Assembly (NCBI GenBank): GCA_034696485.1
Contig: JAQIWT010000003.1
Span: 51,007-115,006, forward strand
DNA from: Isohypsibius dastychi
Taxonomy: Eukaryota > Tardigrada > Eutardigrada > Parachela > Isohypsibiidae
Direction of reading: 5' to 3'
Length of the DNA stretch: 64,000 nt
Shown piece after piece: positions 26,973 to 64,000 of the stretch (positions are counted from its first letter, which is position 1; each line of letters starts with the position of its first letter). Both the position numbers and the translations under genes were made by a program. A model generated the notes under the pieces. That model saw only the letters and a program-made list of their open reading frames with translations, did not search any database and was not told the DNA's origin.

Positions 26973-28002
26973 ATGGCGAATTGCCGAACGTTGTGTGCTT
27001 TGCTTCTCATTGCTTTGGTAGGTGCGAGTCAGCTGAACCACCGGCGACTTCTCTAGGAACGTCATGCATGGAAACTACGATTAGTTTTACGTACTATCAA
27101 TTTCGCCAAAGGCAACGGTTTTGTTTCTAGGTAGCACAAGTGTCTTCTCAGCAGCCGCACTTCCCAGGAGAGCACGACTACATCAAGGTTGATGTTGAGC
27201 TAGTTCAACTGCTCAACCCGCAAGGACTCACTTCTGATGGCTTGAAATGCGATTCCACGAACGAGTGCGACCCCAAAATCACAGCGTACCTTGACACGTG
27301 AGTTTTCACAATTTAAACAAAGACGATCAGCCCTAAAGGGAGACCAGAACAGCCTTATTATAACCTAGTTAGGCGAAAAGAATTAACCGCTAATTAAGAA
27401 GCTCGCGAAGATTCATTCCGATGTATAAATCATTAGTTACTTCGCTTTACAGCGACATGCCTCTAATGGCCTGGCCAGGGGGGAAAGCTGAGTCGGATTA
27501 TGACGCGTTCGCCACTTTCTCCAACACCAACTCACCAGTCATAAACAAGAACATCAGCAAAAACATCTGTGGTGGATCGATTAATGTGAGTGGCATCCTA
27601 ATTATCTTAATTCGTCACATCTCCTCTGATGAATAGTTGAGTGACCTTTTCAACCCATATTTCACAGAAAGTAAACCTTAGGGTCCACATTGTTGATGAG
27701 GACCCTTTCAGCAGCAAGGCCGTGATCGACGACTTTGAATGTCTTTTTGTGGCTGATTACGGATTAGTGCACTCATCATTTGCGACTTCCGAATGGTCGG
27801 CGACCCAGGACTGCCGACCTTTGAGACAGAATAACAAAGTCCGGTGAGTAACACTTCCGGTCTTCCATGACTCCAACTACAAATTTTTTGAATTATCATT
27901 AAACATTTTCTTTTCAGACTTCAATATCGCCATCGTCTGTACGACATACCGCCTTCGGAGTGCGGGATCAAGTCTAGTTCCGGCACGGTAGTTCGCCATT
28001 AA
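26973..28002 (+). CDS. Family gene A: secreted single-module protein, MNNL/C2-like
   Basis: Five exons: 26973-27016 or so (signal peptide MANCRTLCALLLIAL), 27131-27297, 27453-27585, 27668-27843 and 27918-28002. All join in frame, giving ~200 residues. The single module reads, in order: DVELVQLLNPQGL; a Cys pair in LKCDSTNECDPKITAYLDT; MAWPGGK; SPVINKNISKNICGGSI; KVNLRVHIVDED; DFECLFVADY; SEWSATQDC; LQYRHRLYDIPPSECG. Six cysteines suggest three disulfides. The pattern V-E-L...N...C...CDP, a WPG, a strand L-R-V-H-V-V-D, a W, and a closing L-Q-Y-R-Y-R-L strand resembles the MNNL domain of Delta/Jagged ligands. No DSL or EGF domain follows. It is separated from the other five members by CPT2 and midasin. 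Function is unknown; a secreted signalling antagonist or structural role is speculation. Confidence 0.78.
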
Positions 28003-28090
28003 CGCGTTTTTCAACCAAAACGCAAAAGTGGAGAAGATTTTCTGAACGGTCTGTTTATGGTGCTCACTTTGACATCTACCAAGAATAGCA

Positions 28091-28096
28091 AATAAA
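28091..28096 (+). terminator. Polyadenylation signal AATAAA of family gene A
   Basis: AATAAA about 90 bases after the stop codon of gene A and ahead of the convergent CPT2 gene. Confidence 0.6.
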
Positions 28097-28287
28097 AGTG
28101 TCTATGCAAGGTTAAATAAGAAAGAGCAAGATGAATGTTATTCCAGCAAAATGCCAGCTTTTAAACAAATCATTTAAATTAGTTTGAAAAAAACACATCA
28201 GACGTGTTAGTTCGAACTTGTAAAGAGGCAGTTCACAATACGAGATGATAATTTTAGGCTGTTAGTGTGGGCTGGTTGATCTCAGTA

Positions 28288-30897
28288 TTATTTATGAGAA
28301 ATCACTTTCAGCAAATCGTCGAAACTGTCTTTGATGGCTTCCGTTAGCTGCTTACCGCTCCTCGTTTGCGGAAAATAGAAAACAACACATCCCATCGAGT
28401 GATCCATACAGGAATAACCCAACCCGAATCCATCCGGCACAACGGGAGCAAAGCCACCGGCGGCAATGGCTGGACTTTGAAGAGTCGAAGTAGACATAAT
28501 GTTGTGATTCATGCGAGCATACGCGGGATCTTTGAATATTGCCAGCTCCTTTCCTTCACCTTCAGCCAGTTTACGAAGTGCGAATAAATGGCGATCAAAA
28601 CCGTGGCCTGCAACCCACAAATATACATTATAACTGCGTTGGACTAACTCTCATTTGTCAGACAAATATTCAAAACAATGCCAGTCACGTCATGATTTGA
28701 AAACAATGTTTTTAAGTTTTTCAAAATTAGATTTTTCAAGCATGAAAAATATCAACGGGAACGGAAGTTCAGCATACCCATTGCTGCTTCTTTGGTCAGA
28801 AGGCCATGATAATCTGAACACTTTTTCAAAAGGTCTTTTAGATCCTGCGAAGGTCTAGCTTTCTCTTTTACGATGATCTCAGACAATTGTTTGGTCAGAT
28901 TTGTGGCGGACCGAATACACTCTGTTCTCCCGTGCTTGAAAGCCGCGGTGCTGCATGACTCGTACGTCGGTGCGACTTCACCACCGGTCATCCGGTAGTA
29001 AGCCATCTGTAAATGCAGTTACGTCAACAAGATAGTAATAACAGAAGACGAATTATCCAACACAGTAGGTCCAACAAACGTAAGCATGTACCTGGAAGGC
29101 CAACTGCATCAGAGAGTCCGGGTAGAAGCCGAATTTCTTAATTTCTTCTTTCCCATAACCTCCGTACTCGAGGATACTGAGATCAATGCTGTTAACACTC
29201 TTATCAAATTGATGTCGTGCGATACCGATCTGTTTCTGGATTTCAGGTGTCATTTTGAAATCTGAAACGGGTGATGTTTTTAAAACCTACAGACATAAAA
29301 AAGCCTGATCACTTACGCATTTTGGACACATGCACGGATGGGTCAATCGTGTGAGATGAAGAGCTCCCCAAGGTGAAATTATGCTCCTTGGCGTCCTTGT
29401 AAATTTCATTCACAAATCGCAGAACAGCCACACCATCTCCCCAAGCGTGCTCAAAATTAACGGCTGCTCTTCCTGCTTTATCGACGATGAGAGAAAAGCT
29501 TTTGTCAAACCATCTGAAAACAAAAATCAAACGTTTTAAACAGTCCTTGGATTACCGTTTTTCGAGTTTCCAAACAATCGATAGGAAGAAAAATCTCACC
29601 GATTATACCCATCGCCATGCAGCAAGTTTTTGCACGAGAAGAAGATATCGTCACTTCCATGATGATCCAATGACAAAGTGAAAATGGCCGAATCAATTTT
29701 ACGAAGTAGCGCTTCGTTTCCGGCTTCCACAAGTTTGTCGCGAACAGCGGCCCAGTGATTCCGCTCACCACCGGAAAGAACAGCAATGGAATCCGGCGAA
29801 GGTGCAGGTGACGTCTTAATGATGTGATCGTAACATTTCTTGATTTCATCAGCCGGTAAAATATTTCCTTGAATTACAATGCATTCCGAATCGTAAAACG
29901 AAATAGCAAATCAAAAGAACTCACCATCTTTGTCGTAAACATCAAATGTATAGAAAATGCCAGTATGAAGAACAGCGATATGGTTGGCATTCTCATCCTT
30001 GTAAAGCACGTCCTTATTCGCTTTTGGAATGCGGGTTGAATTGAAGAGATTCTCGTATTGACTCATGTCCAGCGGGAAAGCTTTGTACAAATAAGCGCCA
30101 TACCATGAGATGGCCGGCGGAAGCATTCTGTGAATATCCAACACGTTTTCGATTTGAAATTATTGCACTAGCATTTTAACTAACCAGTACCTCACAAATT
30201 TACGGAAGCCAAGTGTGTCAGTCTTTTTTGGATTCAGGTGATAAACATCCGGTTCTAAAAGACTCTGCCGAACACTGTTTCGGAATCGCAGTGCACTGTA
30301 TGTCAGATCAGCAGCACGAACAGCCTGGAAAACAAATAAATTCAATGTGAAGTTTTCTTTCCAAGCTGCTATCAAACATCCGTACCTGCTTCATCTTTTC
30401 TTTCACTGGATCATCATTCATGGCGATAAATGGATTGAAATTAATAACCAGTGGAGCTCTCGATGTCAAATACATGTCGAACCACAAATCGGAAATATAG
30501 CTGGTATGCTTCTTTGACTTGTCAATCTTGACAAGTTTTTCTTGAAGATCTTAAGGCCAAAACTAACGTCAACATTGCAAATTGGTCAAGTGTAAAACTA
30601 TGTACCTTTTCCGTCGTTCGCGATAAATTCAGCGCAAGCTTTCGCGGTATTTTGCAGCTTATCTGGAGAAAGAAGAGGCTCCTGCGCTTTCAGGTAGCGT
30701 TCAAAGGTCTTCTCCAGTTTCGGAATCGGCAGACGCGGTAAACTCTTTTGGAAATGCATTGTTGGAACAATGCTCCGCTGCAACAGCTGATCATCTTTCG
30801 TCGATCTTCCAGACGATGCAGCAGAAGATGACAGTCTCTGGCTCGATAATAACCAGCATCGGTGATGGACTGCACGTGCATGAATTAGTCCTGTCAT
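28288..30897 (-). CDS. CPT2: Carnitine O-palmitoyltransferase 2, mitochondrial
   Basis: Converts long-chain acylcarnitine back to acyl-CoA on the inner mitochondrial membrane for beta-oxidation. Multi-exon on the minus strand, about 640 residues. The preferred start is the ATG at 30897, giving a Ser/Arg-rich import signal ([13 protein letters not shown]...[10 protein letters not shown]). The first conserved block is [20 protein letters not shown]. Later blocks match CPT2 specifically: [80 protein letters not shown] and [20 protein letters not shown]. The catalytic His lies in [16 protein letters not shown], and the C-terminal acyltransferase signature is [28 protein letters not shown]. The absence of N-terminal membrane helices separates it from CPT1. 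The last exon ends ...LLKVISHK with the stop at 28288. It is convergent with family gene A and divergent from midasin. Confidence 0.93.
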
Positions 30898-31319
30898 CTT
30901 CGTTATCTCTGGGAAAGGGGCCAAGGAAGGAGCAAGAATTCACAGAACAGGAATTTCTCAAAACAAGTTCTCTAAATAGGCGAAGTAAACCAAAACATCC
31001 GCTAAAGCGCAGAATTGCCACACACAGGCCCATTTTATATACGTTTTCGCGCTTCACGGTGAGCGAAGCTTGAAGCAAACTCAAGCGAGCGGCTGTGTGG
31101 CACTTGCATTCGACTTAATCGGCAGTTGATTTGAACGTCATAGAAGTAAGACAGAAATTCAATCAAACAAATACATTGCGAAATGTCACAGAATGCAAGT
31201 TTGATTTCCTGCGTAAATTTAGAAGTGGTTCGATCTCGTGCCGCTCATCTCCTCCGACATCAATTTATCTGGCAAAAAAAATCTCCGTGCGAAGTTGTAC
31301 TGCGTGACATCCACATGGG
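30898..31319. promoter_or_regulatory. Divergent (probably shared) promoter region of CPT2 and midasin
   Basis: Only ~420 bases separate the two divergent start codons, so 5' UTRs and core promoters of both genes must lie here. I see no TATA box near either start. Small open frames in this interval are antisense or leader sequence. Confidence 0.5.
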
Positions 31320-34300: not shown

Positions 34301-37300
34301 CACAGCTCAATCGTCAGTCTCAGGCCTTGATGAAGATGACAATTGAAAACCATCTGCTGGGAACGACGAACAGGTCACTAATGACACTTCCGGTTCCACG
34401 ACCTACCTCAGGAAACTTTGAGCCCGTGGAGAATTACTGGCTACCTCGTGGATCAATTGAACCGTTTCGCGACAAGCAATATATTACGACGAAAACTGTA
34501 AAACACAACTTGACCGAAATTGCGCGAGCCATTTCTGCAGGGTAAGAATTTTTCCATGTTATACTTTTCAAGAGAAGCTAATTCCAGTGTTATAGACAAC
34601 TGCCCGTTTTGTTGCAAGGAGAGACATCTATTGGTAAAACAAGCATGATAACTTACCTCGCCAAACTGACCGGAAATCCATGTGTGCGAATCAACAACCA
34701 CGAACATACTGATTTGGAGGATTATTTGGGTTCATATCAAACCAATGAAGCCGGGAAATTGGTTTTCCAGGAAGGGATCCTGGTTAACGCAGTTCGAAAA
34801 GGTCATTGGATAATCCTGGATGAGTTGAACTTGGCGCCGTCAGATGTTTTGGAGGCACTGAATCGGTTGCTCGATTCTAACCGAGAATTATTTATTGCTG
34901 AAACTCAGACCGTTGTCCGGGCCCATCCAAATTTTATGCTGTTTGCAACGCAGAATCCACCCGGGTATTATGGAGGACGAAAGAGTTTATCGCGTGCGTT
35001 TCGGAATCGTTTTATTGAGATGCATTTTGACGAGATCCCACCGGATGAGCTCCAAGAAATTTTGCAAAAACGATGCGATCTCCCGGAGACATACGCGAAG
35101 AAAATGATTGCGGTCATGCTGGAATTGCAAGCTATCAGGAAGAACAGCGGTGTCTTTGCGGGAAAACAGGGCTTTATGACTCTTCGTGATCTGTTTCGCT
35201 GGGCAGACCGTTATCGCCTGTCAGCCGCACCGGTGAAAGGATTTTACGATTTCGACCAACATTTAGCGGATCATGGATTTTTTCTGTTGAGCGGAAGGGT
35301 ACGGAAATTTGAAGAGACCGACACGATTAGACGGACCTTGGAGAAACATTTCAGAAGGACCATTGACCTGATGCGGTTGTTCGAAGACGGTGATGTTCTG
35401 TCTTCCACATCGCAGAAAGTTTTGAGAATGTTCATGGAATGTGATTTTCCGGAATTCGAACATATTGTCTGGACATCGAATATGAAACGCTTGGCGGTGT
35501 TGGCAGGGAATGCGCTGGCCTTCGGTGAACCGATTTTACTGGTCGGAGAGACCGGGTAATACTTGGTTGTTTGTGTTGAACTAAGATCGTTTTGATTGAC
35601 AGATTTGTAATTTTGCAGCTGCGGAAAAACCACGATGTGCCAGATCTATGCCATGCTGAGGAGTTTGCGATTGTTCGATGTGAATTGTCACGTGAACACA
35701 GAAACGTCCGACTTTCTTGGAGGACTCCGACCGGCGAGAAGCGAGCAGGTATTATCACTGGTTCATCGATTTATTCACGTGATTGAAGAAAGACTGTAAT
35801 GAATGGTCCATGAAATTTGTTTGGAAAATAAATTGTTTTAGGACTCTGGAAAGTTGTTCGAGTGGAAAGATGGCTCTCTGGTTGAAGCGATGCGAAACGG
35901 CGGAGTTTTTTTGTTGGATGAAATTTCTTTGGCCGAAGATTCAGTCATCGAACGCGTTAACAGCGTTCTAGAACCTGAGCGGTCACTGGTGTTGACCGAA
36001 AAGAGATGTGCATCGGAGAATCAGAAAGTGGATGAACTCATCGCTCATCCTGATTTCCGCTTTGTTGCCACGATGAATCCTGGTGGTGACTTTGGAAAGA
36101 AAGAGGTACGGTTTACAGGGCGATTTCGGGAGGAAATGATAACAGGCTGTGAGATTGTTTTGTTCTAGTTGTCACCAGCTTTGCGTAATCGGTTTACCGA
36201 AATTTGGTGTAATAATCTGGAAATTCCGGACGACGCGGAAATGGTATTTCGCCATAATTTGTTCAAGAATACGAAATTTGCCGGTGACGCTGAAATCAAA
36301 GAAACGTTCGTGCTGGCCATGAGAGATTTCGTGATTTGGCACAGGAGAGCTTTTCCGAGGTTCGTGTTGTATTTCGATGTCACTCAGTTGACTTATTTAA
36401 AAGAACCAATTTTTGCAGGATTCTCATAAGCAGCCGTGATATTATCAGCTGGATTAGATTCATCAACCATTGCTTGCAACCTGATTCATCTCTGAACATG
36501 AATCCGTTCTCTGCGTATTTCCATGGCGCTTTGATGGTTTTTGAAACTTTGAACGCCCATGATATGTCTAGCGGAAATGCACGTGTATCCAGCGAGATTT
36601 TGCAGTTCCTGGTCAAACAAGCGCGATCTGATCTGCTGACGAAATATTTCTCGGCGAATTTACGTGTCGGTTTGGATTTCGACGAACACATTCTGGATAC
36701 TGAAAATCGATTCGGTGTTCATCCATTTTCCATTCCGAAATGTAATATTTTCTTCAGCTAGTTATCCGTTTTTATACAGCGGTTTTCTTTGCAGATTCCA
36801 CAGTCAGTTCGACGAAGACTTACAGTTTCGAGTCGAAGAGCGTTCGACACAATCTTTTAAGGATACTTCGTGGGTTGACTGTTGCGAAAGCTGTTCTTTT
36901 GGAAGGATCGCCTGGCGTCGGGAAAACCAGCATTGTGTGCGCATTGGCTGCTAAGACCGGAAATAAAATCGTCCGGATAAATCTCAGTGAACAAACGGTT
37001 AGTTTCCACATACTAGTTCCTCATACTTTTGTTCAATTTCATTGGGCTCTTAGGATGTCTCGGAATTATTTGGATCGGACATGCCCACTGAAGGTGAAAG
37101 CGCCGTATTTTCGTGGAGAGATGGACCATTTCTACAAGCCTTGAAGGACGGCTCCTGGATTCTCCTAGATGAAGTAATTTTATACATCTGAATCACGTGT
37201 TAGATGAGGGTTCTGACAGTGACCTTTTCGTAGCTTAATCTGGCGTCTCAGTCTGTCCTGGAGGGTCTCAACGCATGCTTGGACCATCGGGGCGAAATAT

Positions 37301-40300
37301 TCATCCCCGAGCTCGGTAGAACGTTCAAAGTCGATTCTGACAGAACCCGGATATTTGGTTGTCAGAATCCCGTTCATCAAGGGGCGGGTCGAAAAGGATT
37401 GCCGAAGTCCTTCCTGAATCGATTCACTCAGGTATTTCCGGGTGCATTTGCTTTTAGCTTCCGATATTACAGGCGGTTTTTTCAGGTTTATATGGAAGTC
37501 CTTTCCGATGATGATCTGCTGGCGATTTGCCAGAATGCATTTCCTCATATCCGTTCAAGTGAATTAAAAAGCATGTTGCTCTTCAATGATGAAATTCAAC
37601 GGAGTATCCAGAGAAGGCAATTAGGAACTGAAGGTCAACCTTGGGAATTTAATCTGCGGGATGTTATGCGTTGGTGCGAATTGATCACAACTTCGCAGGT
37701 ATGATTGATGTTCTTCTCAAACTGTTTTTACCTAAATGTCTGGGTTTTCAGGATCCCGAAAAGCTGAAAAGTGCATTTGTTGAACTGCTGTATGTCTACC
37801 GTTTCCGTACACCAGTCGACCAGGCCAAAGTCCGCCAAATGGCTGTTCACTCCTTATCATTACCGACCGAGTTTTCACTTACTCGAGAATTTGTGAACAT
37901 GGAGATTTCCAAGCTATCAGTTCAAATAGGAGAAGCGACTCTGCCGTTGTCTCGTGCTTCGTCCGCGGTAAATCCTCCCACTCAGATGCTTCAGTCTCAA
38001 AGCGCCATACTGGAAAAACTCGTCCTCAGTGCTCAGCATAACTTCGTGTCTATCTTGGTGGGAGGTCATGGAAGTGGCAAGACCACGTTAGTTGAGAGTC
38101 TCGCTGCACTCAGTGGAAATCGACTGGATGTGATGAACATGAACAGCTCTACCGATGCCGGAGAACTGCTTGGTGGATTTGAGCAATGGAGTAATGAACG
38201 CCGGCGGGCTGAAATTGTTGAGACATGTGGGAGAATGGCTGAGCTGGTTTCCGATCTTAGTCTGGGCTTCCGGACCCTGCTGTTGAAGCTTGGAAACACT
38301 GTCCGAAACGAAACTGTTTTCCGGTCATTGTGTGCGGACACTTTGACAGAGCTCGAGATGCCGGCTGTTTGGAATGCAGGCGTTGCTCCATATTCCATTG
38401 ATCGACTGAAACACCAACTGAACCGATACATGGTGTGTGAGAACTCGTCGAAAGGAAGTTTTGAGTGGTCGGACAGCATCATCGTTAAAGCTCTTTTGGA
38501 TGGATCGTGGCTTTTGGTAGAGAACGCTAACCTGTGCAGGTAATTGGTCTGTTCAATTTGTTTCTGGTTATCGCCTTAAACCGAATCTTTGTAGCCCGGC
38601 AGTTTTGGATCGATTGAATTCTGTTCTCGAACCCGATGGTCAGCTGGTGTTATCTGAGCGGGGAGCAATCAATGGTTCGATTGCTGTCATAAAAGCCCAT
38701 CCACATTTCCGGCTATTCTTGACTATGAATCCCAAATACGGCGAACTTTCACGCGCGATGAGAAACCGAGCCATCGAGATTTTCGTCTCACCTCCATTTC
38801 ATCCCCGGGACGGCGTTGCGTTGGTTGAAGAATTCGGGTTGTCGAAGAGCACAAGCCTCGCACTAAGAGATGTTTTTGCCGAAATCGGACGAACCCAGAG
38901 TAAGATTATTCTATTTACTACATATAGCGCTGCTGTGGATCAGCCGGTAATATGTTCCTTCTATATGCAGAACTGACTCTTAAGGATACACATGAAATTG
39001 CTCAGGAAGTGTCAATGCGTGGCCAGGGGGTTGACAATCTGCTTCAAAATTCGGATATTGTGAAAGCTGTTGCAAGGTGTACTACGTTGGACGTTACCCA
39101 GGAGGTATTCATTTGTGACCTTTTCCAAGATTCCCTATGAACATATACGCTCAAGTTCGTTGTATGGTTCAAGTTGAATCTTTGCAGTTGGCTGCGCGGA
39201 TTGATCATACACTTTCATGCCGCTCCGCTGATTGTTCACACTCTGTGATGTCATTCCCAGTCTTGCTCCGCAGTGTCCTGGATGAACCTCTTAGTACCAA
39301 CGCTTTGCGCCATCAGAATTCGTTGGCGACTGTTTGGCTCACCTGTGACAATATCATCGGCGCTCTCATAGGATCGACTGAAGCGGTACAGTCTCTTCGT
39401 GATGCTGTCGTACTCCCAGTGATGTTATCCGCGCTTGATGGTTACTTTAACTCGTCATCTGTGGAGGAATGGCACTTGCGCACTTCACTGGAAGGTCTCC
39501 GTAACTACGAATGGCCAAGTGATTTTCGGTTGTTGCTCTCTGCTGTGGAAACAGTCTTCAAAGACCTTGATGATGCTGCCATTGATCGCCATACAGGTAC
39601 CGTTGCTGTTGACCTGCGTTATGAGGTCACTGACTTTTTGTTTACAGATGAGTCGATGGACGTGGATGATGCTCTTGTAAGCTTCGACAGAAAATTGCAT
39701 CTCTGGATCCGTCTTGTGCTGGAGTGGGGTTTGAAGACTGCACAGAAACAGTCCAGTCGGCAGCTCTCATCTTCGCTTGAGCAGTTCCGAGATTTTTTCG
39801 CAAAATTTGAAAAAGTAGTCAACCGTTCGCTCGATGTCGTAAGATCGACAGGGTTGCCTGACAGTGTTTTAGTGGAGCTGGGAAGAGCAGCGCTATGGCT
39901 GCGCAGTGTGTATTACATTTTGGAGAAAAACTCATCCGCCGGAAACGACAACAGCCTCTTGGCAATTCTGTGGAATCTGTTCCTGAAACAAGTTTGGAAA
40001 AGGTTCCCTGGTATGTTATTGTTTTGAACTTCTGCATAAGAAAACTAACTGTTTGTTTTTCAGAACTGATGTTTGAAGCAGCTGACCCAGCGTTGGTAAA
40101 ACGGAAACGTGATTTCGACTCAGATTTCGTTTTCGAGTATAGCAAGGTGACGTCGAAACTCCGACATCAGCTACCTCCTGGTAAACCTTTTGATTCCGAG
40201 GAGAGCTACCGAAAGAATTCAGCTGTTTTGGGAAACGACGTATACCATTCCGATTTGGAGGAGGATTTCCTGCCCGGAACTATCGTCAGCAAACTTGAGA

Positions 40301-50304: not shown

Positions 50305-52507
50305 ATGAAGATCGCAGTTTTCGCATTATGTGTCGCAGCGGTAAGTCGCATTATTAATTATTTTAATTATGAGTTATTTTATTAAATATCATGTTTCGAA
50401 CTTGGTCTTTTGTCTTCGAAAATTGACGTTGAAGATTTTTGTATACATCGCCTTTATTTTATAAGTGAATCCATGGACAGAATTCTTGAATGAAATGTGT
50501 TCAAATTATATGGGTTTTGAATATTTCATGCTTCTCGTTAAACTGGTTCGTGCAATGAATTTGTCCTGTCTTTAGGTTTGCGCTCAGCGGGACAGTTTTG
50601 GCTCCAGTGGCGACCGCTTTGACCCCTCAGGGTCACGAGACAGGTTTCCGGCAACAAGTGGAAATTCTGATCGCGGTCGTGACACTAACCGGGATAGAGA
50701 CCGAGATACAGTTGGAAGTGGCAGTGGAGACCGATTCCCACCCTTCTTCCGTGTTGAAGTTGAAATCCAGAGACTCGAGAATAAGAATGGCTTCCGATCC
50801 GACGGAAAAGCCTGTGATTTGACCAGCGACTGTGATCCCCGTATATCTGCATATCTTGACGAGTGAGTTTGTCTAAATTAAGCGGCCTATATTCATGACA
50901 AAACTAGTGTATAAAAAAGTACAATTAATTCAAAAAAGCAATGCAGCATCAGGTGGCGGTCACCCTGTGTCGTATACCGGTTGAAGTTTTTGGTTTTAAT
51001 TTGACTTCGTTGTATTCGTTGTAGCGATAAGCCATTATCTCCATGGCCTGGCTCAAAACCAGTGAAAGACTGGGCTACAATTTTTGAGGCCACCGACAAC
51101 AATTCCCCAACAATTGGCAAATCTGTCAACCGTGACGTGTGTGGAGGATCAATCAGCGTAAGCAAGCACTAATTACGGTCTACATAGCATAACTCAAATG
51201 CGTTAAAAGAATCTGTTTCAACTATTTTTGCATATTTTAGAAAGTGAATTTGCGTGTGAACGTTGTGGATGTCGATTCGACTGTTGGCAACGATCTCATC
51301 GGCACTTTTGAATGCCTTTTCACCGTGAGTCCACGCGATATCGCCACATCCGCCGGAAACGCACAATGGGGTCCGTCGATGGAATGTGTCGGCGCAACTC
51401 AACAAGGAAAAATCAAGTACGAACTGAGTGCGATGAGCTTGTTACCGACTTCCCGGAAGAGAAGTTGGACAGTGGAGTTTTATGTCGTTTTTGTGTCAAC
51501 AGGTTGTTCGCTAGACTGCGAGGTTATGAAATCGCATCGTCAAGCTGCCAAGCAGTCGCTGGTGAGTTTGCCATTATGTAATCATTTTAATGGGTTTTGA
51601 TAACGATGAATTGGTTTCAGGATCTGGGATGAACACCGATTCATTAGTTAATGGACCATCCGCCAAACGGGAAGGAGAGCATGATTTTATTCGGGTGGAT
51701 GTTGAACTTGTCCAGTTATTGAATCCTCAAGGCGTGACGAATAAAAAAGTTAAATGTGATACCGGCAACGCATGCGACCCTTCGGTCTATGCGTACCTTG
51801 ATACGTAAGTTCGCGGGGATTATTAGAAACAGTTTTTTGCTGAAATTATTTAATGAATTTTTATAACAAATTTGCTTTGGTTTCTGCAGTGATAAGCCAC
51901 TGGCCGCCTGGCCCGGCTCGCGAACTGTGGACAAATATGAGCTGCTCTTCTCGACCAATAATGTCGACTCTCCAGTTATCAACAAAAATCTCGGCAAAAA
52001 TATTTGCGGTGGATCCGTTTCGGTAAATAGTTAATGGACCTCCAACAACTTGTGCATTAATTTAATACTGTTCTTGTTTTTTAGCAAATCAATCTGCGCG
52101 CTCATGTCGTCGATTCCGATGTCACAACCAACGATGATATCGAAGATTTTGAATGCGTTTTCGCAGCTGATTATCGAAAAGTTGCCCGAGATGTCTCTTC
52201 GGCTGACTGGTCTTCAACCCAAGACTGCAAGCCATTGCATCCAGGACATGATATCAGGTAATACTACCAGTACTTTGCATTCTGAAACGTTCCCAGATGA
52301 GACCTCTGAATTTTGAATTTACACCGCATTGGTATTTGGATCAATTCAAGTAATGCTTCGTCTGGACTTGAGTTGAAATTATTTCTCATTTCTAGACTGC
52401 AGTATCGTTACCGCCTGTATGATATCCTCCCAGCGGCCTGTGGAATCAAGCCGGCTGGAAGCAAACCTGCTGCATCCGGTGGCTTCCTCAGCAACATTTT
52501 TGGATAG
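50305..52507 (+). CDS. Family gene B: secreted two-module MNNL/C2-like protein with RD-rich spacer
   Basis: Exon 1 encodes signal peptide MKIAVFALCVAA. Exon 2 (from about 50578) begins with a low-complexity Arg/Asp/Gly/Ser segment (DRGRDTNRDRDRD) and runs into module 1: FRVEVEIQRLENKNGF, KACDLTSDCDPRISAYLD, SPWPGSKPVKDW, VCGGSIS, KVNLRVNVVDVD, NDLIGTFECLF, AQWGPSMEC, KLFARLRGYEIASSSCQAVA. A phase-1 intron leads through a short linker (GMNTDSLVNGPSAKREGEHD) into module 2: RVDVELVQLLNPQGV, CDPSVYAYLDT, AAWPGSR, KNICGGSVS, QINLRAHVVDSD, DFECVFAADY, ADWSSTQDC, LQYRYRLYDILPAACG. It ends with a Gly/Ala/Ser tail and TAG. Each module uses the same four-exon layout as gene A, and the first is of the 'RLRxYEI' subtype also found in gene D. 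Function unknown; no membrane anchor. Confidence 0.76.
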
Positions 52508-53082: not shown

Positions 53083-54284
53083 ATGAGGTTTATCGTTTTT
53101 GCATTTTGCATCGTAGTGGTACGTTTCGGATACATGACACTTTTGGAAACTAGTTTCTTTACAATGCCAGAATGGAAACTGCCGGATCTCGGTCCTCCAG
53201 AATTGTTATTTACAGGTTTCTGCCGCGAAGCTCGGAAGTCCAGCGGATGAGGAGATCACTGCAGAAGGTGACTCTGCAACTGGAGTTATATTTGGTGCGA
53301 AACTCCCGGGAGAGCATGATAACATTCGTGTGGAAGTCGAGTTAGTTCAGCTTTTGAACCCGCAAAGTGTCACATGGAAGAAAGAGAGCTGCGATTTCGG
53401 AAGCGCTTGCGACACGTGGATTTACGGCACAATGGACACGTAAGCGTTTAAATTATTTTCTCTATGTGATTGTGAACCATCAAAAAATACACTAGATTTA
53501 TCGGATTGGACATCTGTATTACAGAAATTCCTAATTTTCAGTGATAACCCTACCATGGCTTGGCCGGGTTCGAAAGGTGTTGATCGCTTCAACCTTCTAT
53601 GGTCCGGCAACAACGTTGATTCGCCGATCCTGAACAAAATTGCTCAAAAGGATATCTGCGGCGGACTTTCAATCACGGTAATACGGTCGGGTCGCAGACC
53701 CGTAGTCGGTCTCCAAACATCCGTTGTGGAGTAAAATCTTATGTTTTTAAATCTCTAAGTAGGTGAAAAAATTCATAATTATTATTTGCAATAAGACTTC
53801 GTCTTTCTAGTGAACTAAAAAACTTTGTTGTCGGTTTGATGGCTAATGGAATCATTATTCTTCCAGAAAGTGAATTTCCGGGTTCATGTGGTTGATGAAG
53901 ACATAACAAGCAACACCGAAATGGAGGACTTCGAGTGCCTTTTCGCCGCTGACTACCGAAAGGTCGCTCGAGACGTATCATCCGCTGAATGGTCAGCCAT
54001 CCGAGAATGCAAACCCTTTCACTCCGGCCATAACATCAGGTACCAGTCAAACTAATCACACATCCGTCATAAGTTTGCCAACAATAACCCCGCTGTAAAG
54101 AATTGTGTTTTTGATGTTCATGCAATTAAAGATTCGCATTTATCAGTTCAAAATGGAACATTCTTGCAGGCTGCAATATCGTTACCGAATCTGTGATGTC
54201 CCAAGGGATCAATGCACTCCAGGAGAGTCGGCAGGCACTCCCCAAGGTTCCGGGACCAAATTTCAGCTTGTCCTCATCCAATGA
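53083..54284 (+). CDS. Family gene C: secreted single-module MNNL/C2-like protein
   Basis: Exon 1 gives signal peptide MRFIVFAFCIVV. The phase-0 junction leads to an acidic pre-region (SPADEEITAEGDSATGVIFG). The module then reads RVEVELVQLLNPQSVTWKKE, SCDFGSACDTWIYGTMDT, MAWPGSKGVDRF, SPILNKIAQKDICGGLSIT, KVNFRVHVVDEDITSN, DFECLFAADYRKVARDV, AEWSAIREC, LQYRYRICDVPRDQC. The C-terminal tail ends GTKFQLVLIQ with TGA at 54282-54284. That tail is shared with gene D, marking C as close to D's second module. All four module exons have the same phases as gene A. The second cysteine motif is CDTW instead of CDP, as in D module 2 and E module 3. Confidence 0.78.
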
Positions 54285-54915: not shown

Positions 54916-57189
54916 ATGAAATTTTTTACGTTATTTCTGTGCATTGGAGCGGTAAGTATCAAAACTGTATGACATTTTTTCGACAATATCAAATAAAATC
55001 AAATACGTGATAGTCTGAAATCTTTTTCCAGTTTATGGGTTCTCGCACGCTGATCTGTGAATTTGACCGATTTTCAGGCACTCGCTGCAGGAGATTTCGA
55101 AGAGACGACAACAGAGGAGCCTGATGAGGTTACCGCAATGGGCGGGTGGGGAACCGGAGTTCTGTTCCAGTACCCAAAATTCTACCGGCTTGAAGCTGAA
55201 ATAGGAAAACTGGACAATGGGAATGACATCCGATATGACGGCAGAGGCTGCGACAGGAACCCCAGTTGCGATCCAAAAGTGACCGCTTTTATTGACACGT
55301 AAGTCTCTCCTAAAACGCTCATTATCTCTCAGAAAGGTTGCTGGTTCGTGCGATTCTGGTCTAATGTTAATTATAAAATGGTATTTTCCTGATTATAGCC
55401 AGACACCGAGCTCGCTCTGGCCCGGTAAAGTGCCGAGAACCAAGTGGCCGCTGATTTTTCAGATTTCCGACACAAACTCGCCATACATTGGGTCGATCAT
55501 CAGACGGGATTCCTGCGAAGCCCCAGTCAAGGTAAATGCTTGTGGTTCGAACAACTGGTTCAGCATGAAAAGTTATCTAACTCATTTGGCTTTCGGCAAA
55601 AATCGCAACTGCTCCAGCCAGTTGCGCGACTTGATTACTCTGTACCCTCTTTGAAATTCTGAAAATTCCCTGAATATATGTCCGGTATTGTATTACAGTA
55701 AACTCTCTAAATCTGAACGCGGAGATCCCCCCTAATATGATTTTAATGGGCGTTCGCCGGTGCCGGAGATAGCGTTCAGAATTCGGAACTGTTCAGAATT
55801 CGGAGCGTTCAGATCCGGAGCGTTTACTGTATATGCCAAGTGAAATATGATCGAAACAGGCTTTGATTTGACCCTAAAAAGATTCGTGTGTTTGTATTCG
55901 TACACTCTTTTCAGAAAGTGAATGTGCGTGTTCATGTGGAAGACAGCGACTCTGACGCTGTTGAAAACGACTTGATCGACAACTTTGAATGCAAATTCGA
56001 CTTGGGTCCCCGTGATGTAGCCAGCGACGTTGCGAATGTGATGTGGAGCAACTGGTTACCATGTACTAGTCTGAATCAGCCAGGAAAGATCACGTAGGAA
56101 GAGCCCAAGTGTTTTATTACTGAATGATTTCTGAAAACCTGTTCCTATAGGCAATATGTCCGACTTCGCGCCTACGAGATTCCTGCTGGCAGCTGCCAAA
56201 TTAACGGTAGGCCTGAACATGTCATCTTTAGATTCGATTTTCAAGTTCGAAGAGCAAATGTTTTAATCCGAGCGAGCATATTATCATCGCTAGAGCCATG
56301 GTGTTTTTCTAGCTCTCCAGGTAGGACCGGCTAGCAGTGATCCACAGGGTGGGCAGAAGCCAAGACACGATGCCTTCCGTTTGGATGTGGAACTCGTCAA
56401 ACTGGAAAATCCCAAGAGCCACACCTATCAGAACGAAGGTTGTGACACTGGAAGCTCTTGCGACACTTGGGTCTATGGAGCCTTGGATACGTAAGTCAAC
56501 ACCGCCTTTTGGTTGGCTGTGCCAACATGTCACATGCGACACATTCGCTCACCCACTCGCATTTTTTCAGTGAAAAGCCTCTTGCTCCATGGCCCGGGTA
56601 TAAACCAGTGGATCAGTACACTCTTCTGTATTCTACCAACAATGAAGATTCGCCAGTCTTGAACAAGATCGCTGGCCGAAATATCTGTGGTGGAACTTTA
56701 TCGGTAAGCAAACATGATACCCAATGACATTGCATTTTACATTCAAATGTTTCAAAGAACGAGTGTTGGGATTTGGCTTGATCGAATAAACCATATCTTT
56801 AATTGTTAGAACGTCAACTTCAGAGTTCATGTGGTTGATGCGGATTTTACCTCGAGCACCGACATCGAAGATTTTGATTGCCAGTTCGCAGTGGATGATG
56901 ACCTAATTGCCAAAGATCTGGCTTCTGCGCAATGGTCAGCCACTCAGTACTGCAAGCCCCGTCACGCAGGCACCGTGGACATCAAGTATGGTTGACAAAA
57001 TAAAAAGAACAATTTTGAATTCAAGAACATGATTTTGAAACAAGCAATTTGCATATACAATGCATTTTTTCATTTTACAGACTGCAGTTCCGTTACCGGC
57101 TCCACGATCTTCCTCTGGACAAATGTGGACTCACAACCCCCGCGCCAGCACCAGGCGGCTCGAAATTCCAGCTTGTCCTCATTCAGTAG
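54916..57189 (+). CDS. Family gene D: secreted two-module MNNL/C2-like protein
   Basis: Signal peptide exon MKFFTLFLCIGA is followed by an acidic Thr/Glu spacer (DFEETTTEEPDEVTAM). Module 1: FYRLEAEIGKLDNGND, GCDRNPSCDPKVTAFIDT, SLWPGKVPRTKWPLIF, SPYIGSIIRRDSC, KVNVRVHVEDSD, NDLIDNFECKFDLGPRDVA, MWSNWLPC, YVRLRAYEIPAGSCQING. Module 2: FRLDVELVKLENPKSHTYQN, GCDTGSSCDTWVYGALDT, APWPGYKPVDQY, SPVLNKIAGRNICGGTLS, NVNFRVHVVDADFTSSTDIE, DFDCQF, AQWSATQYC, LQFRYRLHDLPLDKCGL. It ends GGSKFQLVLIQ, TAG at 57187-57189. The ND-L-I-D in module 1 recalls the conserved acidic-Leu-Ile position of MNNL domains. The third intron hosts a small transposable element. Modules 1 and 2 are very similar to modules 2 and 3 of gene E, so the two genes share a recent common ancestor. 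Confidence 0.78.
55696..55829. mobile_element. 134-bp non-autonomous Tc1/mariner (pogo/Tigger-like) element in an intron of gene D
   Basis: Imperfect terminal inverted repeats of about 25 bp begin CAGTAAAC at both ends. The inner part ATCTGAACGC is identical in both arms, with four mismatches between the inner and outer blocks. The element is flanked on both sides by the dinucleotide TA (55694-55695 and 55830-55831), the target duplication of this superfamily. CAGT-x-AAC followed by a C/T-rich block and a GAAC-type end is typical of pogo/Tigger termini, from recalled family knowledge. No coding capacity; inserted in the intron, so the gene D transcript is not obviously harmed. Confidence 0.72.
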
Positions 57190-58096: not shown

Positions 58097-60723
58097 ATGA
58101 CCATGAGGCTCATTCTGTTCACGTTGCTAGTTGGTGCGGTATAAGTTTCTCACCCAAATATAATCACACAGAAAAATTATCCGTATGTTCCAAAAATTAT
58201 CCTTTCATCCACAACATGAGAAAGCCACTTTTTTCATACTGTCTGATCGATCACCTTTTTGTTTGGTGCAAAATACTACCAATACCTGATATGAACGTCG
58301 ATCGGCAGGTACTGGCACAGGATAAATATCCATCGTCGTACCGAATAGAGCTGGAAGTTATTCGTCTCGAGAACCCGAATGCCCTCTTAGCAAATGGCAA
58401 AGACTGCGACTCCCAATCGTCGGAACTCGTCAATTCCCAGTCCTCTGTCACTATCGGAGGTCACTGCAATCCGCATATTTCTGGCTACCTTGAGCAGTGA
58501 GTTCACCGCATCTGGTTCTAGACTCTAGAGTGACTGGAAGTTTCGCCGCGTTTTTTTACTAAACCTCAACGAATGTGAAATCTATACGGTTGTTACAAAA
58601 ACTCTTGGGCAATCGCTTTGAAAAATCTGTGACATATTTGTGTTCAAAAGTTTGTGTATTCAGATCTTGTCCCAGAGTTGTAAGGGTTCTCACCAAAGTA
58701 TACTTGAAGGTCCACATACGAACTCGTGATTTTGAACGGAGATGCTGTTTTAGTGGCGAAGCTGTTTCTGCCTGGCCAGGGAGAATACCATTGAAAGACT
58801 GGTCTGCAATTTACGAAGAGATAGAGAATGCCAATCCAACCATTGCTCACACGGAAGGCATCACAGTGTGCGGAGAACCAGTCAAAGTGAGTTTGGATGA
58901 AATGACTAAAAGCGGCAAATAGCCAGGCTTTATAGGGCAACATCATATTACCATTTTGTAATGTAGAAAGTGGGTTTCGAAGCCCATGTTGTCCACGAGA
59001 CAAGCCCGGTGGACAATTTTCTTATTGGTGACTTCAACTGTATCATCGACATTCCTTCGCGAGCAATCGGAAAATCGCCCGAACAGGCAAACTGGGGGTT
59101 TCAAAGGGAATGCAAGAAAGTCACCAAAAACGACGAAACTATACTGTAAGACTGACACCCAACGGTCTTCGAGTTTTCTGTCATTGTGTTCTTTCAGTTT
59201 ATTGGCAAGAGCGCGCGCATACGAAGTGCCCTCAGCAGAGTGTCCAGTGTTGCCTGAAAGTAAATATCTTCAAACAGTTTTGTTGCAGGTAGATGTAGTT
59301 TGACCTACTTGTCCAGGTACAGAAAATGGGGACACTCTAAAGCCAGCAAATGCTGCGCCTGTCACGCAAGCAACCATAGCTTCACCACAGGATGAGGAGG
59401 AGACCGTTGGGTCCAGCTCTGCCTCCGGATTTCAACTCCAGTTTCCCAAATTTTACCGACTGGAAGCTGAAATAGGAAAACTGGACAATCCGAATGACAT
59501 TCAATATGATGGCAGAAGCTGCGACAGGAGCCCCAGTTGCGATCCAAAAGTGACCGCGTTTATTGACACGTGAGCTCCTTCTGATTCGTCGCAATCTGGG
59601 TTCAACCTTTTGATTGTCAAATGGAATTTCTCTTTTGTAGCCAGAAACCGAGTTCGCTCTGGCCTGGTCCAGTGCCGCGAACCAAGTGGCCGCTGATTTT
59701 TCAAATTTCCGATACAAGCTCGCCATACATTGGGTCAATCATCAGACGGGATTCTTGCGAAGGCCCGCTACCGGTAAGCACTTGAAAGCGACTTTGAACA
59801 TATCAAGATCTATCTTTTTGTAAGCCCACGCTTTTTCCAGAACATAAACGTGCGCGTACATGGTAAGTTGCCTCTGTTCGGAGTGTTGATATTCTAAAAC
59901 ATTGGCTTGGCCTGTTGACTTCTCTAGTGGAAGACGCCGATTCCGATGCGACTGAAAATGATCTGATCGACAACTTCGAATGTAAATTCCAGTTGGGTCC
60001 CCGTGGTGTATCAAAGGACATCGCCGGCGCAATGTGGTCAAACTGGCTACCATGCACTAGTCTGAATCAGCCTGGGAAGATCACGTAAGGAAAAATAGAG
60101 TTTTTGTTCCCGAATGACTGCTGAAGACTTGATTTTGAAGATTGTACGTCCGACTTCGAGCTTTCGAGATCCCTGCAGCCATCTGCCAAACAAACGGTAA
60201 ACCTAAACGCAGCCCGGGTTTGTTTTTTGATAACTTAACCCCAAGTCCCTTTGTGCTTACCCGAACAACCACGATGTCATCACCAAGTGTATTTATTCTC
60301 AAGCTGTCCAAGGAGGATTAGCTCTCAGTGATCCACTCGGTGGACAAAAGCCAAGACATGATGCCTACCGATTGGATGTGGAGCTGGTGAAACTGGAAAA
60401 TCCAAAGAGCCATACTTACTCGAACGAAGCTTGCGATATCGGGAACGCCTGTGACACTTGGATTTATGGAGCACTGGATACGTAAGTCTACACCGCATCT
60501 TGGTTGACTGCTGTCATCCAGCAATCAAGATGCGTCCAGCATATTCATTAATTATCATTTTTTTAGAGAAAAGCCTCTTGCTCCATGGCCCGGCTATAAA
60601 TCTGTGGATCAATACCAGCATAGGACACAATCCCGGCCCGGATTTCTACGACATAATCTCGCTTCCCCCCAGCCCCCTACAAGATGTAGCATGAGGGTTC
60701 AGGAAGCTGAACCCTCACGCTGA
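58097..60723 (+). CDS. Family gene E: secreted MNNL/C2-like protein, originally three modules, now truncated in the third
   Basis: ATG at 58097 (or in-frame ATG 58103) encodes signal peptide MRLILFTLLVGA. Module 1 is a divergent subtype: YRIELEVIRLENPNALLANG, a 20-residue Ser-rich insert before HCNPHISGYLE, SAWPGRIPLKDW, VCGEPVK, KVGFEAHVVHE, NFLIGDFNC, NWGFQREC, ARARAYEVPSAEC. A Glu/Ser/Ala linker (QDEEETVGSSSASG) leads to module 2: FYRLEAEIGKLDNPND, SCDRSPSCDPKVTAFIDT, SLWPGPVPRTKW, NINVRVHVEDAD, NDLIDNFECKF, YVRLRAFEIPAAICQTNG. This module carries an extra 65-bp intron. Module 3 begins normally (YRLDVELVKLENPKSHTYSN, CDTWIYGALDT, APWPGYKSVDQY) and then enters a transposable element, reaching an in-frame TGA at 60721-60723. 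The truncated product would keep two full modules. Whether it is made is unknown; the first ATG was chosen because it opens the signal peptide. Confidence 0.68.
59863..59927 (+). other. Extra 65-bp intron unique to module 2 of gene E
   Basis: The codons for RVHVED are interrupted after CAT G by GTAAGT...TCTCTAG and resume as TG GAA GAC. Every other module in the window reads through this point. Length 65 is not a multiple of three and the intact frame requires its removal. Consensus donor and acceptor are present. Confidence 0.75.
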
Positions 60724-60831
60724 GCCCTGAACGCTGAACGAAGCTGAACCCTCAAGCTACATCCTATGGGGGGCTGGGGGGAAGCGAGATTATGTCGTAG
60801 AAATCCGGGCCGGGATTGTGTCCTATGCTGG
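60615..60831. mobile_element. 217-bp foldback MITE inserted in a coding exon of gene E
   Basis: Two perfect inverted arms of about 63 bp (60615-60677 and its complement ending at 60831) begin CCAGCATAGGACACAATCCC. They surround an ~90-bp centre that itself holds AGCTGAACCCTCA words in both orientations. The element is flanked by TA duplications (60613-60614 and 60832-60833), as for Tc1/mariner-type insertions. Removing it plus one TA restores GAT CAA TAC ACT CTT CTG, matching gene D (GAT CAG TAC ACT CTT CTG). The arms' perfection indicates a young insertion. It has no coding capacity; the source transposase is not in the window. Confidence 0.9.
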
Positions 60832-61540
60832 TACACTCTTCTGTATTCTACCAACAACGTCGATTCACCGGTCTTGAATAAAATCGCTGGCCGGAATATT
60901 TGTGGTGGAGCGTTATCACCCACTGACATTGCGTTTAAGGTTTTAATTTTTCGAAGCTGATGAAATTCGGCTTGCTTGTATAAACTGTATCTTCCATTGT
61001 TAGAACGTCAACTTCAGAGTCCATGTGGTTGATGCGGATTTCACCTCAAGCACCGACATCGAAGATTTTGAATGCCAGTTCGCCATGGATGATAAAATCA
61101 TTGCCAAAGATCTGGCTTCTGCTCAATGGTCAGCCACCCAGTACTGCAAACCTCGCCATCCAGCTACTCAGGACATCAAGTATGGTTGACAAAATCAGAG
61201 AGAACAATTGATAGCTCTCAGATATGAGTTTGGAACAAGAGTCCTGATTACGTGATCTGCTTATACTGTACAGTACATCTACTTTTTTATAGGCTAGGTA
61301 CAGTTCCGTTACCGGCTCTACGACCTTCCCTTGGACAAATGTGGACTCACAACCGCCGCTCCGGGCGGCTCGAAATTACAGCTTGTTCTGATACAACAGG
61401 TTTCATTCTTGACTTTTAACGTCGTGAGCAATAAGGTACCATGTGAGAAGCCTGTAATGCAGATGCAAGTTGGTTTCCACTTCTTTTCCATCCATTCATT
61501 CAGAAATGGCAGTGACAGTACGAGAATTGGCAATAAATGA
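60832..61540 (+). pseudogene. Orphaned remainder of gene E module 3 (broken)
   Basis: Downstream of the MITE the module-3 sequence continues (TLLYSTNNVDSPVLNKIAGR NICGGALS, then NVNFRVHVVDADFTSSTDIE) but is damaged beyond the insertion. The splice donor after ALS, present in gene D as TCG|GTAAGC, is gone through an ~18-base deletion. Only a weak in-frame alternative (TTTAAG|GTTTTA, 60938) remains. In the final exon extra bases near the acceptor (61291-61301) put the RYRLYDLPLDKCGL reading out of frame for all AGs I tried. The original stop is changed, so the old frame would run on to about 61540. Together with the stop inside the MITE this marks the third module as non-functional. Confidence 0.7.
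61532..61537 (+). terminator. AATAAA polyadenylation signal downstream of gene E
   Basis: GGCAATAAATGA near the end of the broken module; the corresponding place after gene D reads GGCGATAAATAAG. This may still terminate gene E transcripts. Confidence 0.45.
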
Positions 61541-62283
61541 AATTAAAGTGAATACTTCGGTTCCTCAGTTAGCTCGAGATCATGATTCTGTGCGAACGAT
61601 GTCAGTGTCCATAAAAAACGAACGTATACATGATGCAACGCTATAATAAGTCAATCATTCAATTACAACTTGATCAAATTGGGGTCAACCAGACGCTTTA
61701 TTACAGAATAACGACCAATGCAAAGTTTTCCCATGACTCTGGCCAACGAGCTATACATTCCTTTTTCGTAAAGCCGTCCGGACTGTCATTACTGATTCGT
61801 TTCCGCTGCTGACAGCTTTGACGAGCGAACTTGCCGGTTACCGAATATGCCTTCAGGGTCAACAGGTGGAGTAAAGTAAAACGTTTGGGAAATTGTTGCT
61901 CTACCTCGTCCTCATGCATTATTTAGCGTTCTCCGAATCAAGTGACATTTTCTCATCATCAATCACACAGCTGGTTTTATGCAATTGAAATTCGATTAAT
62001 ATAGACATGCCTAGAAAAGTTCTTTGTCTCTGTTGTCTTTCTTGGGACGATAGTGGTTTGATTAACAGAACTGTGTTTAATAAAGGTCACAGCTTTCTTG
62101 TAAACGTTTGCTCGTAGCTATGATTGAAAAATGAATGCCAGGTTCCTGTCATGATAAATAATTTAGTACAAATACTGGCATCCAAATTCAGTTGTAGCGC
62201 ATGTTCAGTTTTTTTTTCTGGGCAGGTGGATTCTCAGACAAATCTGCCGCGTTCTTTGCACGCTTGACCAGGACTGTTTTCAA
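61541..62283. other. Intergenic region between family genes E and F
   Basis: About 740 bases with no supported gene. Several stretches match the D-E intergenic region, for example TTTCCCATGAC..T.GC near 61730 versus 57563, and the last ~230 bases before the start codon. This is the trace of a tandem duplication. Confidence 0.55.
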
Positions 62284-64000
62284 ATGATCATGAGATACAT
62301 TCTGTTGTCACTATTTGCGTGTGCGGTAAGATTTACGCCCGAACTTGCACAAACTACCGCAGAATTCATGGAACAAAACTACCGTTCCACATCACATCTG
62401 AGATCCAAAAATTTATTTTCAGGCACTGGCACAAGATTCCGGTCCGAAAAAATATCCTGCGTTCTACCGAATAGAACTGGAAGTTATTCGACTCGAAAAT
62501 CCGAATGCCATTCTAGCAAATGGCAAAGACTGCGACTCCAAATCCTCGGAACTTGTCAACTCCCAATCTTCTGTCACCATTGGGGGCCATTGCAATCCCT
62601 TTATCTCTGGATATCTTTCTCAGTAAGTTCATATGAAGTGACAAATTTTCTCACCCGAGAGCTCTCTTTACTGAAGTTAAATTCAATTCAGGTTGTCATA
62701 TCAAACCAAACAACATGTCCTTGTAGCAGAAATAAATAAATTTTTGTCTGAATAATTTTATATATTCGGAAGCTGGAGAATGATGAGCCATTCGTGTCTA
62801 AACGCCCGTGTTTACCAACGCACACACTTCATGTTGTTATTTTTCAGTGGTGACGAGGCTTCTACCTGGCCAGGCAAAATACCGTTGAAAGAATGGCCGG
62901 CAATATACGAGGAGATGGAGAACGCTAACCCAACAATTTCTCACAGAGAAGCCATCGATGTCTGCGGGGAGCCCGTCAAGGTAAGACAACCAGATTTGCT
63001 TAAAACAGCTGAAAAACCCGCATGGGTATGGTCTACTACTGTACAGTCTGCATGTTCAACGTAGACCATGTGAAAACAGTTTTGAAATACTGATATGAAC
63101 GTTGTATGTAGAAAGTGGGTTTTCGAGCCCACGTCGTGCACGAGACAAGCCCAGTCGACAACTTTCTAATTGGTGACTTCAATTGTTTAATCGACATCCC
63201 CTCACAAACAATCGGAAAAACTATCGCACAGGCCAGGTGGGGTTTTCAAAGGGAATGCAAGAAAATCACCGAAATCGATGAAACCGTACTGTACGAAGAG
63301 ATACTCAACGGTTTTGGCGTTTTTGTCATTGTGTTCTTCCAGCTTATTGGCAAGAGCGCGAGCATATGAAATTCCTAAAACAAAGTGTCCACCGTCAAAG
63401 GAGGAAGAAGAGGTCGTTGGATCTAGTTCTGCTACTGGAAAGCCACGACCTCAATCCCCACCAAAGGAGGAAGAACAGGTCGCTGGGTCTAGCTCTGCTA
63501 CTGGAAAGCCGAAACCAAAACCCCTACCAAAGGAGGAGGAAGAGGTCGCTGGGTCTAGTTCTGCTACTGGAAAGCCGAAACCAAAACCCCCACCAAAGGA
63601 GGAAGAAGAGGTCGCTGGGTCTAGTTCTGCTACTGGAAAGCCGAAACCAAAACCCCCACCAAAGGAGGAGGAAGATGTAGCTGGGTCTAGTTCTGCTACT
63701 GGAAAGCCACGACCTCAATCCCCATCAAAGGAGGAGGAAGAGGTAGCTGGGTCTAGTTCTGCTACTGGAAAGCCACGACCTCAATCCCCATCAAAGGAGG
63801 AGGAAGAGGTAGCTGGGTCTAGTTCTGCTACTGGAAAGCCACGACCTCAATCCCCACCAAAGGAGGAGGAAGATGTAGCTGGGTCTAGTTCTGCTACTGG
63901 AAAGCCACGACCTCAATCCCCACCAAAGGAGGAGGAAGAGGTAGCTGGGTCTAGTTCTGCTACTGGAAAGCCACGACCTCAATCCCCACCAAAGGAGGAG
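62284..64000 (+). CDS. Family gene F: secreted MNNL/C2-like protein with expanded repeat linker; runs off the window
   Basis: ATG 62284 (or in-frame ATG 62290) encodes signal peptide MRYILLSLFACA, with phase-0 donor GCG|GTAAGA. Module 1 is almost a copy of gene E module 1: FYRIELEVIRLENPNAILAN, HCNPFISGYLS, STWPGKIPLKEW, VCGEPVK, KVGFRAHVVHE, NFLIGDFNC, RWGFQREC. The fourth module exon starts at about 63342 (after CTTCCAG) and encodes LLARARAYEIPKTKC, then passes without a break into PPSKEEEEVVGSSSATGKP and tandem copies of this linker until the window ends. In gene E the same linker (EEETVGSSSASG) is present once and is followed by module 2, so F probably also has further modules beyond base 64000. 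Secreted; function unknown. Confidence 0.72.
63388..64000 (+). repeat. Coding minisatellite, 66-bp unit, at least nine copies
   Basis: The word GGAAAGCC recurs exactly every 66 bases from 63437 to 63965. Each unit encodes 22 residues, approximately KEEEEVAGSSSATGKPRPQS plus PP. Two sub-variants alternate in blocks: KPKPKPP at the second to fourth copies and KPRPQSP elsewhere. This is the mark of expansion by local unequal exchange. The unit length is a multiple of three, so copy-number change keeps frame. The array continues past the window end. Confidence 0.93.

What the first reader, a model, noticed from the sequence alone, without database searches (positions are those of the whole stretch)
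26973..64000. Tandem family of secreted proteins built from a Notch-ligand-like (MNNL/C2) module without DSL or EGF domains
Six genes (A-F) encode signal peptides plus nine recognisable modules of ~190 residues. Ordered landmarks are a V-E-L-V-x-L-x-N strand, a Cys pair ending CDP/CDT, a WPG, CGG, an L-R-V-H-V-V-D strand, a D-F-E-C, a W-S, a Cys, and a closing L-Q-Y-R-Y-R-L strand with a final Cys. The order of strands, the WPG-type turn, the acidic-Leu-Ile site and the closing Y-R-Y-R strand recall the N-terminal MNNL/C2 domain of Delta and Jagged. There the DSL domain follows immediately; here the chain ends or another module begins. An expanded secreted family of such modules could act as free antagonists or as lipid-binding C2-like proteins. 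I know of no description of this arrangement.
Basis: partly seen in the sequence, partly recalled or inferred. Interest (0 to 1): 0.82.

Follow-up and report, generated by a model that had tools for sequence, protein, structure and literature searches.

The report
Water-bear antioxidant C2 gene array
A stretch of a water-bear (tardigrade) genome carries six neighbouring genes of AMNP, a known tardigrade stress-protein family likely to be secreted and to use metal to destroy peroxide; the fold is predicted to resemble the head of Notch ligands although the scanned proteins do not match that family in sequence, and two modules have lost most of the usual metal-binding residues yet look conserved by selection.

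Summary
In detail: six spliced genes carry ten modules, nine clean and one (F3) interrupted by a transposon-like insert. The family is not new: a profile of eight modules finds the crystal structure of tardigrade AMNP/g12777 at E 3.2e-60, published as a tandemly duplicated Mn-dependent peroxidase family (PMC9145152). No scanned module or relative matches Pfam MNNL; this genome's MNNL hits lie on other contigs, one followed by DSL. New here: modules F1 and G1 changed four of five metal positions (D98N, D131E, D161H, D163T), yet dN/dS between them is 0.14. Verdict: a known family, with a possible Notch-ligand-type C2 origin and a site-altered module class worth testing.

The parts
26973..28002 (+). 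Gene A, one AMNP module (A1); exons 26973-27017, 27131-27297, 27453-27585, 27668-27843, 27918-28002
   Evidence: splice model, stop; clade with Hex01090, Rv12633 and Pme594165 (99/99)
50305..52507 (+). Gene B-C, two modules (B1 core 50744-51551, C1 core 51674-52444)
   Evidence: continuous in-frame splice model with stop; two-module relatives P0004 and P0005
53083..54284 (+). Gene D, one module (D1 core 53309-54215)
   Evidence: splice model, stop
54916..57189 (+). Gene E, two modules (E1 core 55177-56199, E2 core 56363-57129)
58097..61390 (+). Gene F, three modules (F1 core 58336-59246, F2 core 59448-60189, F3 60354-61345, F3 interrupted); 3' end approximate
62290..64000 (+). Gene G, module G1 (core 62459-63391) followed by a 22-residue repeat; open at the contig end
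58336..58491 (+). F1 exon core with altered first metal loop (CD, a 14-residue insert, then HCN, instead of CDxxxxCD)
62459..62617 (+). G1 exon core with the same altered first metal loop
58973..59119 (+). F1 exon core with HxT in place of D161xD163
63118..63264 (+). G1 exon core with HxT in place of D161xD163
60615..60831 (.). 217-bp element with inverted ends and TA flanks inside F3 exon 3

Best explanation
This is a tandem array of six genes of the known tardigrade AMNP (g12777) family, whose modules are predicted to be secretory-pathway C2-fold domains that likely hold a Mn2+ or Zn2+ ion at the loop tips and would break down peroxide during drying and radiation stress. Family membership is shown by sequence. 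That each module folds as a C2 sandwich is inferred from a model of a homologue (66% identical to A1) and from crystal structures of relatives. The chemistry (Asp92, Asp98, Asp131, Asp161 and Asp163 with the Cys91-Cys97 disulfide next to the metal) is carried over from one published protein; 7 of 9 clean modules keep Asp92, Asp98, Asp161 and Asp163. Tandem duplication made two- and three-module genes. Modules F1 and G1 changed four of the five metal-binding positions and would do something else, for example bind another metal or act as a non-catalytic partner.
For: Profile of eight modules hits 7dbt AMNP at E 3.2e-60 over positions 12-174 and 7df2 at 5.5e-29. Three homologues in the first search, two from Hypsibius exemplaris and one from Ramazzottius varieornatus; 30 rows in the wider search (27 new), those that carry an organism name being H. 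exemplaris, R. varieornatus or Paramacrobiotus metropolitanus, the rest unnamed metagenome rows, the last of them weak at E 0.03. All six Cys of the three published disulfides, W194 and R216 kept in 9 of 9 clean modules; D92 in 9 of 9; D98, D161 and D163 each in 7 of 9 (residue roles from PMC9145152 sections 6-7). In the tree g12777 lies among first-module rows and A1 with its orthologues. Further copies on nine other contigs at E<=1, five of them with a match at E<=0.001.
Against: Peroxidase activity rests on one protein in one study, at 1/20 of catalase and with higher affinity for Zn2+, which gave no activity. D131 is Asp in only 3 of 9 modules (Asn in 4, Glu in 2). No expression data, no signal-peptide predictor and no structure of a window module itself. 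F1 and G1 lack most metal ligands; so do some relatives (RvY_12635).
Confidence: 0.9

Rival explanations
1. The modules are ordinary Ca2+/lipid-docking C2 domains of the secretory pathway and the peroxidase activity is incidental to metal loading.
For: Homologue fold is C2. H. exemplaris AMNP P0001 passes the Pfam C2 cut-off, 26.3 against 22 bits. The metal Asp pairs sit in the C2 pattern D-x5-D and D-x-D, as in this genome's own C2 domain L035. The relative 7df2 was deposited as a C2 domain protein; its paper, as I recall it, reports Ca2+ sites in the C2 loops.
Against: g12777 binds Ca2+ weakly (Kd 139 uM against 1.9 uM for Zn2+ and 24 uM for Mn2+) and lost cell protection when four of the Asp were changed (PMC9145152). 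Of 13 A3 members only 1 matches Pfam C2.
Confidence: 0.3
2. Free Notch-ligand-like antagonists: MNNL/C2 modules released without DSL and EGF domains.
For: Nearest non-AMNP folds include Jagged, Delta and Serrate C2 domains: 12 of the 47 non-AMNP rows listed and 22 of 46. Profile comparison AMNP-MNNL scores above all 300 column shuffles in each of two runs.
Against: No Pfam MNNL match in any module or relative scanned. The genome's MNNL hits lie on other contigs, one with MNNL plus DSL on C728. hhalign probability only 21-28% over 34 columns. Ordinary C2 domains tie in Z.
Confidence: 0.03
3. The F1/G1 module class is decaying sequence on its way to loss.
For: Changed D98, D131, D161 and D163; long shared branch (1.91); neighbour module F3 is interrupted.
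Against: dN/dS of F1 against G1 is 0.140 over 183 codons (200 codon bootstraps: 0.078-0.229); E1 against F2 gives 0.246 (0.153-0.401), so the intervals overlap; all six Cys, W194 and R216 kept.
Confidence: 0.1

Closest known systems
AMNP / g12777 (OG0000231), tardigrade anhydrobiosis-related Mn-dependent peroxidase, PDB 7dbt/7dbu
   Same: Sequence family, six Cys, CD-CD motif (7 of 9 clean modules), W194 and R216, hydrophobic first exon, multi-copy organisation (35 copies in R. varieornatus, several in tandem, and 39 in H. exemplaris per PMC9145152)
   Different: An array with one-, two- and three-module genes (two-module relatives exist in other tardigrades); F1/G1 modules with altered metal site and a 14-residue insert in the first metal loop
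Tardigrade C2 domain protein, PDB 7df2
   Same: Same family by profile (E 5.5e-29); zero branch length to RvY_00338 in the tree; C2 fold
   Different: A separate, more distant subfamily in the tree
Notch-ligand N-terminal C2 (MNNL, PF07657) of Delta, Serrate and Jagged
   Same: C2 sandwich, extracellular, Cys in the first loop, similar order of strands; among the best non-AMNP structural neighbours
   Different: No Pfam MNNL match, no DSL found after the module, different Cys pattern
Canonical C2 domains (PF00168; E-Syt, ferlins, cPLA2, synaptotagmin)
   Same: Fold; D-x5-D and D-x-D loop pattern (7 of 9 clean modules)
   Different: AMNP is disulfide-bonded and apparently secreted; g12777 prefers Zn2+ and Mn2+ over Ca2+

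Membership tests
AMNP (g12777) | Profile match to the solved AMNP | tested here: met
   E 3.2e-60
AMNP (g12777) | Six Cys of C91-C97, C146-C225, C176-C200 plus W194 and R216 | tested here: met
   9 of 9 clean modules
AMNP (g12777) | Metal Asp D92, D98, D161, D163 | tested here: met
   all four in 7 of 9 clean modules; not met in F1 and G1, which keep D92 only
AMNP (g12777) | Mn ligand D131 | tested here: inconclusive
   Asp in 3 of 9, Asn in 4, Glu in 2; relatives vary too
AMNP (g12777) | Signal peptide | tested here: inconclusive
   hydrophobic first exon joined in frame in six of six genes, judged by eye; no predictor run
AMNP (g12777) | Mn-dependent peroxidase activity and induction by stress | not testable with these tools
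   needs protein or RNA
Notch-ligand MNNL (PF07657) | Pfam MNNL match | tested here: not met
   0 of 4 modules, 0 of 13 A3 members, 0 of 8 relatives; no hit on the window's contig. Positive control: own-genome Delta at 108.9 bits
Notch-ligand MNNL (PF07657) | DSL domain follows | tested here: not met
   genes A, B-C, D and E reach stop codons soon after the last module; no DSL in 4 modules or 8 relatives; genes F and G have no mapped end
Notch-ligand MNNL (PF07657) | Notch-ligand-like C2 fold | tested here: met
C2 superfamily (PF00168) | Pfam C2 match | tested here: inconclusive
   1 of 13 A3 members (P0001, 26.3 bits over cut-off 22); 0 of 4 window modules at E 10 and 0 of 8 further relatives
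C2 superfamily (PF00168) | C2 sandwich fold | tested here: met
   on a model of homologue P0002
C2 superfamily (PF00168) | Loop Asp pattern D-x5-D and D-x-D | tested here: met
   7 of 9 clean modules

The most novel reading that the evidence does not exclude
The tardigrade-only AMNP antioxidants descend from the extracellular C2 head of a Notch ligand that shed its DSL and EGF domains and turned its Ca2+ loop site into a redox metal site; and the F1/G1 modules have since rebuilt that site as Asp92, His96, Glu131 and His161, a mixed Asp/Glu/His centre held by purifying selection.
Probability: 0.2. Interest if true: 0.75.

Novelty: new variant of a known kind. Interest (0 to 1): 0.42.

Why it matters
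AMNP was introduced as a tardigrade gene family without similarity to existing sequences (PMC9145152 abstract). A kinship with a named animal domain class would say where a stress-tolerance invention came from. The site-altered F1/G1 modules, next to modules with an intact site (F1 and F2 lie in one gene), make a ready natural test of whether the published metal site is what the family is for.

Full report
What is there. The window is the last 64 kb of contig C3 of an unnamed animal genome (30.4 Mb in 1648 contigs as held). Reading exons by frame and splice signals gives six genes on the plus strand: A (26973-28002), B-C (50305-52507), D (53083-54284), E (54916-57189), F (58097 to about 61390) and G (62290 to the contig end). 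Each starts with a short exon coding a hydrophobic stretch that ends in phase 0 and joins in frame (A, B-C and D; E, F and G). Each clean module then has four exons with internal phases 2, 0, 2. Modules within a gene can be linked by phase-1 introns (best joins for B1-C1 and E1-E2; F1-F2 and F2-F3 have weaker candidates). F2 has one further 65-bp intron with a GTAAGT donor. Ten modules are present; nine are clean. F3 carries a 217-bp element with inverted ends and TA on both flanks inside exon 3, and no in-frame join to its last exon was found.

What family. Pfam has no match for four modules at E 10. A profile of eight modules against the PDB sequences gives AMNP/g12777 of Ramazzottius varieornatus (7dbt, E 3.2e-60) and a tardigrade C2 domain protein (7df2, E 5.5e-29), then synaptotagmins at 0.11 and worse. 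The protein database gives three homologues at first (two Hypsibius exemplaris, one R. varieornatus) and 30 rows with a wider profile, 27 of them new. Two-module relatives exist in H. exemplaris (BV898_01091), R. varieornatus (RvY_12635) and Paramacrobiotus metropolitanus. BV898_01090 and BV898_01091 have consecutive tags and the same longest-contig length, and RvY_12633 and RvY_12635 share theirs, so the pairing of an A-type and a two-module gene looks old; I did not fetch those contigs. In the tree A1 joins BV898_01090, RvY_12633 and a P. metropolitanus gene (99/99); second modules (C1, D1, E2 and relatives) and the A group form one clade (98/99); first modules and g12777 lie outside it. The species is a tardigrade by these relatives but is not identified (A1 is 66% identical to BV898_01090 of H. 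exemplaris, 60% to RvY_12633).

What is known of the family. PMC9145152 (sections 6 and 7 read; passages) describes 35 copies in R. varieornatus, several in tandem, 39 in H. exemplaris, induction on drying and UVC, a sandwich with three disulfides, Mn2+ on Asp92, Asp98 and Asp131, Zn2+ on Asp92, Asp98, Asp161 and Asp163, heme-free Mn-dependent peroxidase activity and mainly Golgi location in HEK293 cells.

Metal site in the array. In g12777 numbering, D92 is kept in 9 of 9 clean modules; D98, D161 and D163 in 7 of 9; D131 is Asp in B1, E1 and F2, Asn in A1, C1, D1 and E2, Glu in F1 and G1. F1 and G1 have D98N, D161H and D163T, a 14-residue insert between C91 and C97, and a His just before C97. 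No other row of the 27 in that table has His at 161, and D161 and D163 are invariant in the 22 rows of alignment A5. Relatives also vary: RvY_12635 has changed ligands in both modules, the second module of BV898_01091 has D163N and RvY_10595 has D98N. F1 and G1 are 81% identical with dN 0.114, dS 0.816, ratio 0.140 over 183 codons; 200 codon bootstraps give 0.078-0.229. E1 against F2, with intact sites, gives 0.246 (0.153-0.401). By this measure the altered modules are no less constrained than intact ones; the intervals overlap. That they bind another metal through D92, H96, E131 and H161 is a guess from position only.

How it likely works. Modules enter the secretory pathway, hold a divalent metal between the first and third loops beside the C91-C97 disulfide, and remove peroxide when Mn2+ is bound. 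The first two steps are inferred from sequence and relatives, the third is carried over from one published member. Tandem copies would raise dose and allow specialised, multi-module and site-altered forms. Other copies lie on nine further contigs at E<=1; nine loci from six of those contigs were scanned with a profile and all nine hold AMNP-like exons.

Noticed in passing
window 60615-60831: 217-bp element with inverted ends and TA flanks inside F3 exon 3, like a short DNA transposon.
   Followed up: partly
window 63396-64000: 66-bp tandem repeat (22 residues, acidic/Ser-rich) after module G1, running to the contig end; a shorter similar stretch lies in the F1-F2 linker.
   Followed up: no
window 34609-38540: Midasin-like AAA stretches (AAA_5, Midasin lid) between gene A and gene B-C.
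   Followed up: no
L032 (C728): A Delta-type gene with MNNL and DSL in the same genome.
   Followed up: partly
P0010, P0012-P0015, P0017, P0019-P0025: AMNP relatives read without introns on public metagenome contigs of about 1 kb without names, perhaps tardigrade transcripts.
   Followed up: no
P0005 (RvY_12635): Two-module R. varieornatus relative with changed metal ligands in both modules.
   Followed up: partly
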